A stretch of DNA of 41,753 bases, from contig JADGOO010000105.1 in NCBI GenBank assembly GCA_017882905.1, forward strand, positions 1-41,753, read 5' to 3'. The notes under the pieces were generated by a model. That model saw only the letters and a program-made list of their open reading frames with translations, ran no database searches and was not told the origin of the DNA. The stretch comes from Acidimicrobiia bacterium (GTDB lineage: Bacteria; Actinomycetota; Acidimicrobiia; IMCC26256; PALSA-610). This document shows positions 26,379 to 30,667 of this stretch, in pieces (position 1 is the first letter of the stretch; every line of letters begins with the position of its first letter). The position numbers and the translations under genes are program-made.

Positions 26379-26993
26379 ATGCGCCTGCCCGCCGAGCAAC
26401 GCCGCCAGCAGTTGCTCGACGTGGCGCGCGACGTCTTCGCCGAGCGGGGATTCCACGCCACGTCGATGGACGATGTCGCGTTCGCGGCCGGCGTGACGAA
26501 GCCGGTCCTGTACCAGCACTTCCGCAACAAGCGCTCGCTGTTCATCGAGCTGCTCGAAGACGTGGGAACCGAGCTCCTGGGCCGCCTCGACGCCGCCACA
26601 CGCGAAGTGTCCACGGGCCGCGAGCGCGTGGAACGTGGCTTCGCCGCGTACTTCGGGTACGTGGTCGATCATCCCACCGCGTTCCGGCTGCTCTTCGGCG
26701 CATCGGTGCGCAACGATCCGGAGTTCGCAACGGTGAGCGAGCGCGTGGTCGACGCGGCGGCGTACGCGATCACCCCCCTCATCGCGATCGCAGTCGACGA
26801 CGAGCATCGACGGGTGCTCGCGAACGCGCTCGTCGGCATGGCCGAGGCCACGAGCCGCCGATCGTTCGCGGGCGATGACGCGACGCGTGACAAGCAGGCC
26901 GACGACCAGCGCGCCGAGCACCTCGCCCGTTGGATCGCCGAGATGGCGTGGTTCGGCTTGCGCGGTGTCCGGGCCGACGACGGCACCGATTAG
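26379..26993 (+). CDS. TetR-family transcriptional regulator
   Basis: A 204-residue TetR/AcrR repressor. The helix-turn-helix lies near residues 26-48 (HATSMDDVAFAAGVTKPVLY, then QHFRNKRSLF). The C-terminal ligand domain includes FAAYFGYVVDHPTAFRLLFG. I placed the start at ATG 26379, with TAGGTT ending 8 bases upstream; the open frame further upstream overlaps the reductase. It sits immediately before a 24-bp palindrome covering the promoter of the SDR/QueA-like/SufR-like operon, its probable target. The inducer is unknown, though a hydrophobic or acyl-CoA ligand is common in the family. Confidence 0.93.
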   Translation: MRLPAEQRRQQLLDVARDVFAERGFHATSMDDVAFAAGVTKPVLYQHFRNKRSLFIELLEDVGTELLGRLDAATREVSTGRERVERGFAAYFGYVVDHPTAFRLLFGASVRNDPEFATVSERVVDAAAYAITPLIAIAVDDEHRRVLANALVGMAEATSRRSFAGDDATRDKQADDQRAEHLARWIAEMAWFGLRGVRADDGTD

Positions 26994-27039: not shown

Positions 27040-27065
27040 TATAGCAAGTAGTCACTTGTTATAAT
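27040..27065 (+). promoter_or_regulatory. TetR-type operator over a TATAAT -10 box
   Basis: TATAGCAAGT and ACTTGTTATA form 10-bp arms with one mismatch around AGTC (27040-27063). The right arm runs into a perfect -10 TATAAT (27060-27065); the -35 region (AAATAT) is poor. Binding here would block RNA polymerase. The adjacent TetR gene is the obvious candidate. The SDR start lies 38 bases downstream of the -10 box and has a strong GGGGAGG site. Confidence 0.7.
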
Positions 27066-27102: not shown

Positions 27103-27795
27103 ATGGAGCAGCCGCAGCGCACCGCCATCGTCACCGGCGCGGCCCAGGGACTGGGCCTGGCGCTCGCCGAGACGCTCGCCGCCGAGGGCTGGGCCCTCGT
27201 GATCGACGCCCGCCGCGCCGACCGCCTCGCAGCCGCTCGAGATGCCCTCGCGGCGACGACGACCGTGATCGCGATCGCCGGCGACATCAGCGATCCGGCC
27301 CATCGCACCGAGCTCGCCGCCGCCGCTCGCGCCCTCGGAGCCGTTCGGCTCGTCGTGAACAACGCCAGCACGCTCGGCGTCTCGCCGCTCCCGGCACTCG
27401 CAAACGTCGATCCCGAGGTGCTGCGGCGCGTGTTCGACGTGAACGTCGTCGCGCCGATTGCGCTCGTGCGCGAGCTGGCCCACGACCTCGCCGCGGGCGC
27501 GACGATCGTGAACGTCACCTCTGACGCCGGCGTCGAGGCCTACCCGACTTGGGGCGGCTACGGCGCGAGCAAGGCCGCGCTCGAGCACGCGTCACGCGTG
27601 CTCGCGGTCGAGCATCCCGAGTGGCGCGTGCTCACCGTCGACCCGGGCGACATGCGCACCGAGATGCACCAAGACGCCTTCCCGGGCGAAGACATCTCCG
27701 ATCGTCCGCTCCCCGAACGCAGCGCAGTGGCGATCGTCCGTCTCGTCGACTCCGACCGCCCGAGCGGCCGCTATCTCGCACAGGAGGTGGCCTGA
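27103..27795 (+). CDS. Short-chain dehydrogenase/reductase (SDR)
   Basis: A 230-residue classical SDR. The NAD(P)-binding motif is TGAAQGLG (residues 11-18), followed by the NNAS motif near 87-90. The catalytic residues are S140, Y153 and K157 (GGYGASKAA). D35/R37 after the second strand (VIDARRADR) leave cofactor preference open. GGGGAGG lies five bases before the ATG. The stop shares one base with the QueA-like ATG (TGATG) and AGGAGG within its last codons serves as that gene's ribosome site. It is probably controlled by the upstream TetR protein. Confidence 0.93.
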   Translation: MEQPQRTAIVTGAAQGLGLALAETLAAEGWALVIDARRADRLAAARDALAATTTVIAIAGDISDPAHRTELAAAARALGAVRLVVNNASTLGVSPLPALANVDPEVLRRVFDVNVVAPIALVRELAHDLAAGATIVNVTSDAGVEAYPTWGGYGASKAALEHASRVLAVEHPEWRVLTVDPGDMRTEMHQDAFPGEDISDRPLPERSAVAIVRLVDSDRPSGRYLAQEVA

Positions 27796-28907
27796 TGACC
27801 ACGGCAACCGTTCCCACCACCGACAGCGCGCCGACCGGCGCGGCCCCGCTGTTCGAGCCGCTGCCGCTGGCGTTCCGCCTCGACGACGACCACGCCGCGC
27901 ACGAACCGCCGGAGGCACGCGGGGTGCCGCGCGACGGTGTGCGCCTCATGGTCTCGCCCGGCATCGATGCGCCCGTGCACGGCACCTTCGCCGCGCTCCC
28001 CGACGTGCTCGATCCGGGAGACCTCGTCGTGGTCAACACGTCGGGCACGATCGCCGCCGCAGTCGACGCAGAGCTCGACGACGGCACGCCGATCGTCGTG
28101 CACGTGTCGTCGCAGCTGCCCGGCGGGATCTGGACCGTCGAACCGCGCGAGCAGATCGACGGCGGCTCGACGCAACAGCTGCGCCTGGCCGATCGGCCGC
28201 AGCAGGTTCGCCTCGCCGACGGCACCCAGTTGGAGCTGCTGCACCACATGGCCGGTTCGCAACGCCTCTGGCTCGCCGTCGTCGACGACAACGCGGCGCT
28301 TCCAAGCACACTCGCCGCGGCCGGACGGCCCATCCGGTATCGCTACGTGCCGCGCGACTGGCCAATCAGCGATTACCAGACTGTGTTCGCCACCGAGCCG
28401 GGGAGTGCCGAGATGCCGAGCGCGGCACGTCCCTTCACCGATGCACTCGTCACGCGACTGGTGCGCCGCGGGATCGGCGTCGCTCCGATCACGCTGCACA
28501 CCGGTGTGTCGTCGCTCGAAGGCAACGAGCTCCCGTACCCGGAGCGCTACCGAGTTCCGGCCTCGACGGCGCGCGCCGTCAACACGGTCCACCGCGCCGG
28601 CGCACATGTGATCGCGGTCGGCACGACGGTCGTGCGCGCGCTCGAGACGGCCACCGACGCGAGCGGCACGACGCATCCCGCCGACGGCTGGACCGACACG
28701 GTGATCACCCCGGCGCGCGGCGTTCGGGCCGTCGATGCGTTGCTCACGGGCTGGCACGCTCCGGAGGCGACCCACCTCGCGATGCTCGAGGCCGTCGCCG
28801 GGCGCGCGGCGCTCGTGCGGGCCTACGACGCCGCGTTCGCGCAGGGCTATCTGTGGCACGAGTTCGGCGACAGCCATCTGCTCCAGCCGTACGCTGGCCG
28901 GTCGTGA
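27795..28907 (+). CDS. Divergent QueA-like (SAM:tRNA ribosyltransferase-isomerase family) protein
   Basis: A 370-residue member of the QueA fold, which in queuosine synthesis transfers ribose from SAM to 7-aminomethyl-7-deazaguanine in tRNA. Recognisable blocks are HGTFAALPDVLDPGDLVVVN, SDYQTVFATEPGS, HVIAVGTTVVRALETA, VDALLTGWHAPEATHL and EFGDSHLL. Several signatures differ: NNTRVIPARL reads NTSGTIAAAV, PTAGLHF reads PSAARPF, GTFQPV reads SSLEG, and NFHLP reads GWHAP. It lies in one operon with the SDR and the SufR-like regulator by 1- and 4-base overlaps. No other queuosine gene is present, so the reaction may differ from canonical QueA. Confidence 0.87.
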   Translation: MTTATVPTTDSAPTGAAPLFEPLPLAFRLDDDHAAHEPPEARGVPRDGVRLMVSPGIDAPVHGTFAALPDVLDPGDLVVVNTSGTIAAAVDAELDDGTPIVVHVSSQLPGGIWTVEPREQIDGGSTQQLRLADRPQQVRLADGTQLELLHHMAGSQRLWLAVVDDNAALPSTLAAAGRPIRYRYVPRDWPISDYQTVFATEPGSAEMPSAARPFTDALVTRLVRRGIGVAPITLHTGVSSLEGNELPYPERYRVPASTARAVNTVHRAGAHVIAVGTTVVRALETATDASGTTHPADGWTDTVITPARGVRAVDALLTGWHAPEATHLAMLEAVAGRAALVRAYDAAFAQGYLWHEFGDSHLLQPYAGRS

Positions 28908-29587
28908 ACCCCGGATCCGCCTCCGGTGCCGTGAGCATCGCCCCGTCGCTGTCGAGCGGTCAGCGGGCGGCGCTCGAGGCGGTCCGGCGCGTCGGCGACG
29001 CGAGCGCCAACGACGTCGCCGCGGCCCTCGAGATCACCGTGAGCGGCAGCCGTCAGCATCTCGACGCGTTGCTCGACGCCGGCCTCGTGGCCATCACCGA
29101 GACGCCGCATGCCGGCACACGCGGCCGACCGAAGCTCGTGTACCACGTCACCGAACGGGCCGCCCCGCTCTTCCCCAACGCGTACAGCGCGCTCGCCAAC
29201 GAGCTGCTGGGGTACCTCGCCGACGACGACCAGACCCTCGTCGATCGCGTCTTCGAACGCCGCCGCGAGAACCGGATCGCCAACGCACACGTGCGACTCG
29301 CACCCCTGAGGTCGTTCTCAGCGAAAGTCGCGGAGCTCGCCGCCATCCTCGATGAAGACGGCTACGTGGCCACGTGCGAGCAGATCGGTCGCGATCACTT
29401 CCGGATCGTCGAGCACAACTGTGCAATCGCGGCGGTGGCTTTGCGTTACGGGCAAGCGTGTTCCAGCGAGCTCGAGTTCATCCGCGCCGTGCTGAGCGAC
29501 GCGCGCGTGGAGCGGGTGAGCCACATGGTGCAGGGTGCGCGGCACTGCGCGTACGACATCGTGCGCGTACGTGCGAGGCGCGCCTGA
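28904..29587 (+). CDS. SufR-like winged-helix regulator with Fe-S-type cysteines
   Basis: A 227-residue DeoR/ArsR-like regulator of the SufR group. The winged helix is in residues about 17-70 (VGDASANDVAAALEITVSGS, RQHLDALLDAGLV, GRPKLVYHVTERA). The C-terminal part has VEHNCAIAAVALRYGQAC with C173 and C186 (C-x12-C), then C215. SufR proteins use C-x12-C-x13-C-x14-C; here the third cysteine position is Ala (A200) while the last (C-x28) is kept. The start is GTG 28904, overlapping the QueA-like stop (GTGA). It may sense iron-sulfur or redox status. No suf genes are nearby; its target is unknown. Confidence 0.88.
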   Translation: MNPGSASGAVSIAPSLSSGQRAALEAVRRVGDASANDVAAALEITVSGSRQHLDALLDAGLVAITETPHAGTRGRPKLVYHVTERAAPLFPNAYSALANELLGYLADDDQTLVDRVFERRRENRIANAHVRLAPLRSFSAKVAELAAILDEDGYVATCEQIGRDHFRIVEHNCAIAAVALRYGQACSSELEFIRAVLSDARVERVSHMVQGARHCAYDIVRVRARRA

Positions 29588-29710: not shown

Positions 29711-30667
29711 ATGGCGATCGCACTTCGCACTTCTGTTCCGTATTCCCCCGCGCCTGCGCCCGTTCCCGAACCGGGCCCGACCCGTATGGGCCTCGCGATC
29801 GGCCGCACCGTGACGGCATTGCTTGTCGTTGGGCCCATTGTGGCGTTGGCGATCGCGGTGCCGTTGCTGTGGGGCCACGCCGTCAACCTGCTCGATGTGA
29901 TCCTCGCCGCCGCTTTCTACCTGGTCAGCGGGTTCGGCATCTCGGTTGGGTATCACCGGTTGTTCGCGCACCGAAGCTTTCGCGCTGCACGCTGGCTGAA
30001 GATCGCGCTCGCCGCAGCCGGCGCGCTGGCGGTCGAAGGATCGGCAGCAGGCTGGGTTGCGAACCACCGCCGTCATCACATGTTCAGTGACAAGCCGGGC
30101 GACCCGCACTCGCCGCACAACCACGGCACGGGCGCCGTCGCGCAGCTGCGCGGGTTCGCGCACGCGCACGTGGGTTGGCTCTTCCAGGCTGACCTCACCT
30201 CGGTGCAGCGGTATGCGCCCGACATGCTCGACGACCGCGACACGCGCATCATCGGCAAGCTCTTCCCGCTGTTCGCCGTCGCGTCGCTCGCCACGCCCTT
30301 CTTCCTCGGCTGGACGATCTCAGGAGCACTGCAAGGTGCGCTCACGGGCCTGCTGTGGGCCGGACTCGCCCGCATGATGCTGCTGCATCACGTCACGTGG
30401 AGCGTCAACTCGATCTGTCACATGTTCGGCAAGCAGCCCGCAACGCAGAACGATCGCAGCACGAACTTCGCTCCGCTCGCCCTCTTGTCGTTCGGCGAGT
30501 CGTGGCACAACTTCCACCACGCGCATCCTGCGTCGGCCCGCCACGGTGCCTTGGCCCATCAGGTCGACCCGTCGGCTGCGTTGATCCGCTTGTTCGAGCG
30601 CATGGGCTGCGCAACACGCGTGCACTGGCCGACCGAGGCCCAGATCGCGCTCTGCAACGTGAGCTGA
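29711..30667 (+). CDS. Acyl-CoA/fatty acid desaturase (membrane di-iron)
   Basis: A 318-residue integral-membrane desaturase of the delta-9 stearoyl-CoA type. The three histidine boxes are H82-RLFA-H87 (HRLFAH), H119-RR-HH123 (HRRHH) and HNFHH at 266-270, followed by HPASARHG. They bind the di-iron centre. Membrane helices flank them (IVALAIAVPLLWGHAV, LKIALAAAGALAVEG). It introduces a double bond into acyl chains and so adjusts membrane fluidity. It is convergent with a cold shock gene across a shared terminator; both fit a cold response. Confidence 0.94.
   Translation: MAIALRTSVPYSPAPAPVPEPGPTRMGLAIGRTVTALLVVGPIVALAIAVPLLWGHAVNLLDVILAAAFYLVSGFGISVGYHRLFAHRSFRAARWLKIALAAAGALAVEGSAAGWVANHRRHHMFSDKPGDPHSPHNHGTGAVAQLRGFAHAHVGWLFQADLTSVQRYAPDMLDDRDTRIIGKLFPLFAVASLATPFFLGWTISGALQGALTGLLWAGLARMMLLHHVTWSVNSICHMFGKQPATQNDRSTNFAPLALLSFGESWHNFHHAHPASARHGALAHQVDPSAALIRLFERMGCATRVHWPTEAQIALCNVS

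What the first reader, a model, noticed from the sequence alone, without database searches (positions are those of the whole stretch)
27795..28907. QueA-like protein with altered signature motifs in an SDR / SufR-like operon
The fold blocks of QueA are clear, yet four of its most conserved signatures are changed (NTSGT for NNTRV, PSAARPF for PTAGLHF, SSLEG for GTFQPV, GWHAP for NFHLP). No other queuosine gene is in the window. The gene is locked by 1- and 4-base overlaps between an SDR and a SufR-like regulator, behind a TetR-type operator. It may be a SAM-dependent ribosyl or alkyl transferase with a new substrate.
Basis: partly seen in the sequence, partly recalled or inferred. Interest (0 to 1): 0.62.

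Follow-up and report, generated by a model that had tools for sequence, protein, structure and literature searches.

The report
Orphan QueA-like enzyme paired with SDR
This gene encodes a relative of a tRNA-modifying enzyme that sits in genomes unable to make that tRNA modification, is almost always joined to one particular dehydrogenase gene, and often lies beside redox-stress regulators, so it probably uses S-adenosylmethionine for an uncharacterised chemistry on something other than queuosine tRNA.

Summary
Confirmed and extended. The ORF at 27795-28907 (+) has the QueA fold (Pfam Queuosine_synth, 235.9 bits) but scores about half of both QueA equivalog cut-offs. Its genome (100% complete) lacks Tgt, QueF, QueG, QueH and a true QueC, so it cannot make queuosine. 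The four altered motifs are the fixed signature of a separate clade ("QueA2", my label): 62 of 296 sampled Actinomycetota genomes, plus Chloroflexota, Latescibacterota, Acidobacteriota, Bacteroidota, Deinococcota, Gemmatimonadota and, more distantly, Rhizobium plasmids. QueA2 and canonical QueA split at a 100%-supported branch. All 57 sampled genomes with the adjacent SDR subfamily also carry QueA2 (57 of 62 carriers; Fisher p 1e-55), and the SDR lies directly upstream in most loci. The third gene is not conserved: its place is taken by a SoxR-type MerR with SoxR-box promoters, a SufR-like regulator (this window), or a GAF kinase/NarL pair. Residues shared with QueA look like the SAM/catalytic core; switched residues lose conserved basic/His positions and gain Glu/His. 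Best reading: a redox-linked two-enzyme module in which QueA2 transfers a SAM-derived ribosyl/cyclopentyl group to a non-preQ1, probably small-molecule acceptor and the SDR does an NAD(P)(H) step. Substrate unknown. New subfamily; no functional study found.

The parts
27795..28907 (+). QueA2: QueA-like SAM-dependent transferase, 370 aa, clade signature NTS / SAEMPSAxRPF / GVSSLE / TGWHxP / WHEFGD
   Evidence: Pfam PF02547 235.9 bits; AlphaFold model pLDDT 89, QueA structures the only full-length matches, Z 26-27.5; separate clade
27103..27795 (+). SDR oxidoreductase of a subfamily found only with QueA2 in the sample (TGxxxGxG, NNAS, S-Y-K, C-terminal PGDMRTxMHQxAFPGEDISDRP)
   Evidence: Pfam adh_short 132 bits; all 57 genomes that have it also have QueA2; directly upstream in 44/54 and 68/78 loci
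28904..29587 (+). SufR-like transcription regulator (winged helix plus C-terminal EHNCA / ACSSE / HCAY Cys motif, possibly Fe-S); found with the pair in Acidimicrobiia and some Chloroflexota only
   Evidence: TIGR02702 87.6 bits, below cut-off 178.8; Cys motif in relatives; cluster in 8/78 named loci
26379..26993 (+). TetR-family regulator (FasR-like), start approximate; not conserved with the pair
   Evidence: TetR_N 68 bits; FasR model 110.8 bits, below its cut-off 330
27040..27063 (.). Imperfect palindrome TATAGCAAGT-AGTC-ACTTGTTATA in the promoter region of the SDR-QueA2 operon, candidate operator
   Evidence: 9 of 10 arm positions pair; 11 of 500 shuffles equal it

Best explanation
QueA2 and its upstream SDR are a two-enzyme module that is not part of queuosine synthesis. 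Shown by sequence: QueA fold with the conserved core shared with QueA; a separate clade with its own fixed residues; absence of Tgt and other late queuosine genes from carriers that lack canonical QueA; near-perfect co-occurrence and operon linkage with one SDR subfamily; frequent linkage to redox-type regulators. Inferred: QueA2 binds SAM and, like QueA, expels adenine and methionine while passing the rearranged ribosyl carbons (as an epoxy-cyclopentyl or ribosyl group) to a nucleophile on a non-preQ1 acceptor, most likely a small molecule; the SDR oxidises or reduces the acceptor before transfer, or the product after it, with NAD(P)(H). The module is probably switched on under redox stress: by SoxR-type activators in many species and, in this genome, perhaps through the SufR-like and TetR regulators. 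Its product could be a modified redox-active metabolite (detoxification) or a protective compound; the evidence does not say which.
For: No Tgt in the own genome. In 296 Actinomycetota genomes canonical QueA goes with Tgt (154 of 155), while 43 of 62 QueA2 carriers have neither, and the 19 with Tgt all have a separate canonical QueA. QueG is over its cut-off in 18 carriers, all of them among those 19, and QueH in none. SDR: 57/57 genomes with it also have QueA2, Fisher p 1e-55; operon in several phyla and in Rhizobium. QueA2 and QueA split with 100% SH-aLRT. Conserved in both: E250, GTTxxR, E284, H321, Y344, Y352, FGD; switched: loss of conserved K/R84, R89, K/R131, R353, H213, H245, H248, gain of E116, E206, E242, E245, E356, H103, H235, H327, H355, R212. 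Redox regulators: SoxR-type MerR with CX2CXCX5C in 17/19, and a TTGAC plus AAG-N4-CTT overlong-spacer promoter in 15/17 such loci versus 5/96 others; annotated soxR plus a SoxR box TTCAAGTTAACTTGAA in Rhizobium.
Against: No substrate, product or activity is known; SAM use is assumed from homology, and the QueA structures listed are without a known SAM complex. Net charge does not cleanly separate QueA2 from QueA in same-genome pairs, so loss of RNA binding is not proven. Regulators vary (two-component pair, TetR, none recognised), and many loci show no redox regulator. This window itself has no SoxR box. The SoxR-promoter pattern was drawn from the same loci it was counted in. Linkage counts in the named scan come from the 80 loci most similar to the query.
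Confidence: 0.58

Rival explanations
1. QueA2 still modifies RNA: it transfers the SAM-derived group to another tRNA (or rRNA) nucleotide, giving an undescribed nucleoside, and the SDR finishes the modification or is metabolically linked.
For: Same fold and core as a tRNA enzyme; overall charge similar to canonical QueA in several same-genome pairs.
Against: An obligate SDR partner would be unusual for RNA modification (general knowledge); conserved basic and His residues of QueA are lost; no Tgt partner in most carriers; linkage to redox regulators rather than translation genes.
Confidence: 0.2
2. QueA2 is no longer a ribosyl transferase: it uses the SAM pocket for another reaction (SAM cleavage or salvage, another group transfer, or a SAM-regulated non-catalytic role), with the SDR acting on a released carbonyl compound.
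For: Substitutions in the substrate-side motifs include new acid/His residues; no acceptor-making third gene is conserved.
Against: The core shared with QueA is invariant across phyla, which argues for retained chemistry.
Confidence: 0.19
3. It is a diverged but functional QueA acting on salvaged or imported preQ1 in tRNA.
For: Pfam membership; database annotation as QueA (e.g. SCO1804 in PMC4932002).
Against: No Tgt in the 100% complete genome nor in 42 other carriers; where Tgt exists a canonical QueA is also present; equivalog cut-offs missed; not inside the QueA clade.
Confidence: 0.03

Closest known systems
QueA, tRNA preQ1(34) S-adenosylmethionine ribosyltransferase-isomerase (EC 2.4.99.17, PF02547)
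   Same: Fold, domain layout, and about 45 positions conserved in both (GTTxxR, H321, Y344, Y352, FGD, E250, Q195).
   Different: Canonical QueAs of the phylum are 25-36% identical to it; equivalog cut-offs missed; over ten fixed substitutions; no Tgt or other late queuosine genes; paired with an SDR; separate clade.
SoxR-controlled stress or detoxification genes of non-enteric bacteria (general knowledge)
   Same: In many relatives: divergent SoxR-type regulator, SoxR-box promoter with overlong spacer, an oxidoreductase as first gene.
   Different: No SoxR box or MerR gene beside the pair in this window; I found no paper naming a QueA-type enzyme as a SoxR target.
Classical SDR family (PF00106)
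   Same: Cofactor motif TGxxxGxG, NNAS, Ser-Tyr-Lys.
   Different: Subfamily-specific SDAxxExYxGWGGYGxSKAAL and PGDMRTxMHQxAFPGEDISDRP; closest solved structure by sequence only 80 bits.

Membership tests
Queuosine_synth superfamily (PF02547) | Score over the Pfam gathering cut-off across the full domain | tested here: met
   235.9 bits vs 25, residues 26-363 of 370 on profile 5-322/322
Queuosine_synth superfamily (PF02547) | QueA fold | tested here: met
   AlphaFold model pLDDT 89.1; 1wdi, 1vky, 1yy3 at Z 26-27.5 (rmsd 8-9 A, domains shifted) and Foldseek E 1e-21 to 1e-22
QueA proper (EC 2.4.99.17) | Score over the curated equivalog cut-off | tested here: not met
   NF001140 167.6 vs 324; TIGR00113 127.8 vs 267.45
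QueA proper (EC 2.4.99.17) | Canonical signature motifs (N-T-x-V, AAPTAGLHF, GTF-P, TNFHLP, YRF-S-GDAM) | tested here: not met
   Replaced clade-wide
QueA proper (EC 2.4.99.17) | Genome carries Tgt so that preQ1-tRNA exists | tested here: not met
   No PF01702 match in the own genome, 14 of 14 controls positive
QueA proper (EC 2.4.99.17) | Tree placement inside canonical QueA | tested here: not met
   Clean split, SH-aLRT 100; with more outgroups 98
QueA proper (EC 2.4.99.17) | Transfers ribosyl carbons from SAM to preQ1-tRNA | not testable with these tools
   Needs biochemistry
Classical SDR (27103-27795) | TGxxxGxG, NNAG-like motif, Ser-Tyr-Lys | tested here: met
   Pfam adh_short 132 bits; motifs conserved over 93 members
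SufR (TIGR02702; 28904-29587) | Equivalog cut-off | tested here: not met
   87.6 vs 178.8 bits
SufR (TIGR02702; 28904-29587) | Fe-S ligand cysteines in the C-terminal part | tested here: inconclusive
   NCA in 11/11 cluster members and the full three-Cys pattern in 8/11; no cluster shown
SoxR regulon (regulation of the pair) | SoxR-type promoter upstream of the SDR-QueA2 pair in this window | tested here: not met
   The window is not among the promoter hits; present in 15/17 MerR-linked relatives and three Rhizobium loci

The most novel reading that the evidence does not exclude
QueA2-SDR is a widespread, redox-stress-linked pathway in which a QueA-fold enzyme uses SAM as a ribosyl/cyclopentyl donor to a small molecule: a second natural reaction for the QueA fold and a new class of SAM-derived metabolite in streptomycetes and many other bacteria.
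Probability: 0.45. Interest if true: 0.82.

Novelty: new variant of a known kind. Interest (0 to 1): 0.64.

Why it matters
QueA catalyses one of the oddest uses of SAM known, donation and rearrangement of its ribose, and has one recognised substrate. A large clade that keeps the core, lives without queuosine, and is tied to one SDR and often to redox regulators points to an unknown SAM-derived product in common soil bacteria, including Streptomyces coelicolor (most likely SCO1803-SCO1804, inferred from gene context). It also means that 'QueA' annotations in Tgt-less bacteria are misleading.

Tried and rejected
Degraded queuosine remnant: rejected, because the clade signature is strongly conserved. 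SDR-QueA2-SufR as the conserved unit: rejected, SufR-like genes are in 8 of 78 named loci. A third conserved enzyme near the pair: none found; other neighbours (SerB, chaplin, transglycosylase, DedA, xanthine-dehydrogenase-like protein) are lineage-local. Loss of RNA binding judged by overall charge: inconclusive. Full-length folds other than QueA: none listed by Foldseek or VIA-align; the other rows match mainly the small beta domain 86-177. Literature on the family, SCO1801-1804 or SoxR control of a QueA-like gene: nothing functional in the open-access library; subscription journals were not searchable. sco1803 appears once, as a Ser139Phe change in an S. coelicolor mutant with lowered RED production, where ccr1 was followed up (PMC11272600). 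The repeat finder missed the palindrome because of its seed length; a script found it. My gene calls in neighbourhoods use a simple codon-position GC model, so starts and small genes are approximate. A first, cruder model chose antisense ORFs and was discarded.

Full report
What is there. The window holds, on the + strand, a TetR-type regulator (about 26379-26993), a 109-base promoter region with a palindrome at 27040-27063, an SDR (27103-27795), the QueA-like gene (27795-28907) and a SufR-like regulator (28904-29587). The 1-base and 4-base overlaps are exact. Pfam gives Queuosine_synth at 235.9 bits over nearly the whole protein, but both QueA equivalog models stay at about half of their cut-offs. 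The AlphaFold model (pLDDT 89) matches only the three QueA structures over its full length.

Not a queuosine enzyme. The genome, 100% complete by the tool's estimate, has a single PF02547 gene and no Tgt, QueF, QueG or QueH; its best QueC-like stretch is 20.6 bits against about 200 for true QueC in some relatives. In 296 Actinomycetota genomes, canonical QueA and Tgt occur together (154 of 155 canonical carriers), while 43 of 62 QueA2 carriers have neither Tgt nor canonical QueA; the other 19 have both in addition to QueA2. QueA acts on preQ1 already placed in tRNA by Tgt (PMC5372724), so QueA2 cannot be doing that job in most of its hosts.

A separate clade. With the window protein as query, relatives fall into two groups with nothing between: 46-60% identity (186 bits and more) and, in the listed rows, 29-42% identity (at most 136 bits). 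A maximum-likelihood tree splits QueA2 and QueA with 100% SH-aLRT; Rhizobium plasmid proteins join QueA2 at 98% on a long branch. Comparing 118 QueA2 with 48 QueA sequences, about 45 positions are conserved in both, including E250, GTTxxR (276-281), E284, H321, P323, Y344, Y352 and FGD (357-359). By homology this should be the SAM-binding and catalytic core (inferred; I know of no SAM complex). QueA-only basic or His positions (84, 89, 131, 353; 213, 245, 248) are lost and QueA2-only Glu/His/Arg (116, 206, 242, 245, 356; 103, 235, 327, 355; 212) are gained. That is the pattern of a changed substrate, not of decay.

The SDR is the partner. Neighbourhoods of 54 sampled and 78 named loci put an SDR of one cluster directly upstream in 44 and 68, and within a few genes in 47 and 74; several of the exceptions are contig ends. 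The named loci include Acidimicrobiia, Rubrobacter, Streptomyces, Nonomuraea, Ktedonobacteria, Anaerolineae, Latescibacteria, Vicinamibacteria, Saprospiraceae and Thermaceae. Searching the SDR itself at E 1e-40 in the 296 genomes returned 57 genomes, every one a QueA2 carrier. The Rhizobium SDR overlaps its QueA-like gene by 4 bases and, among all neighbour proteins compared, matches only this SDR cluster. Two enzymes that travel this tightly very probably act in one pathway (inference).

Redox regulation. The gene next to the pair varies, but several alternatives look like redox sensors. One MerR cluster has 19 members, 17 of them with the SoxR cysteine motif CX2CXCX5C; 15 of 17 loci with it near the SDR have TTGAC followed by an AAG-N4-CTT palindrome before the SDR, the overlong-spacer layout of SoxR targets, against 5 of 96 other loci and none in shuffles (the pattern was taken from the same loci). 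In Rhizobium the divergent gene is annotated soxR, with TTCAAGTTAACTTGAA between it and the SDR. In this window and other Acidimicrobiia/Chloroflexota loci a SufR-like regulator with conserved Cys follows. In 36 of 78 named loci a GAF histidine kinase/NarL pair is nearby; 22 of 56 kinases of that cluster have a CxC...C pattern, whose meaning is unknown. In Streptomyces the pair lies by a chaplin gene and serB, most likely SCO1803-SCO1804 (inferred from context; SCO1804 is listed as QueA in PMC4932002; SCO1802/SCO1801 as a kinase/NarL pair in PMC9739842).

Most likely mechanism. QueA transfers an epoxycyclopentane moiety originating from SAM to the aminomethyl group of preQ1 in tRNA (PMC5372724), with release of adenine and methionine (general knowledge). 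I infer that QueA2 keeps this chemistry but offers another acceptor pocket, and that the SDR prepares the acceptor or processes the product with NAD(P)(H). The redox regulators suggest a role in handling redox-active compounds or making a protective one. Shown: family, fold, clade, absence of queuosine genes, SDR coupling, regulator linkage. Inferred: SAM use, group transferred, small-molecule acceptor, physiological role.

Verdict. It is a new subfamily with unknown substrate, well suited to a direct biochemical and genetic test in laboratory Streptomyces or Rhizobium strains.

Noticed in passing
L218:4923-10939 (Sinorhizobium meliloti GR4 pRmeGR4a) and L225:5686-15014 (Geobacillus thermodenitrificans T12 pGeo12a): Two further QueA-like genes on conjugative plasmids, each in a cluster with a diaminopimelate-decarboxylase-like gene and a CPBP protease, plus radical SAM enzymes or PqqD and thymidylate-synthase-like genes; looks like an unknown natural-product pathway using a QueA-fold enzyme. 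Both branch outside canonical QueA and QueA2.
   Followed up: partly
L216:3513-5798 (Rhizobium etli CFN 42 p42f), also L219 and L220: soxR, SoxR box, SDR and QueA-like operon on Rhizobium plasmids: a tractable system to test redox control of the pair.
   Followed up: partly
Actinomycetota sample, e.g. G008, G038, G050, G074, G100, G214: About twenty genomes carry Tgt without a QueA match, several with lower Tgt scores, suggesting queuine salvage or another Tgt function.
   Followed up: no
S. coelicolor sco1803 (PMC11272600): A Ser139Phe change in the probable SDR partner is among four mutations of a mutant with reduced undecylprodigiosin in co-culture; by position it may hit the catalytic serine. 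The paper pursued ccr1.
   Followed up: no
window 29711-30667 and 26379-26993: A DesA-like fatty acid desaturase follows the operon and the TetR regulator upstream scores best against FasR, so lipid-type genes flank the module in this genome.
   Followed up: no
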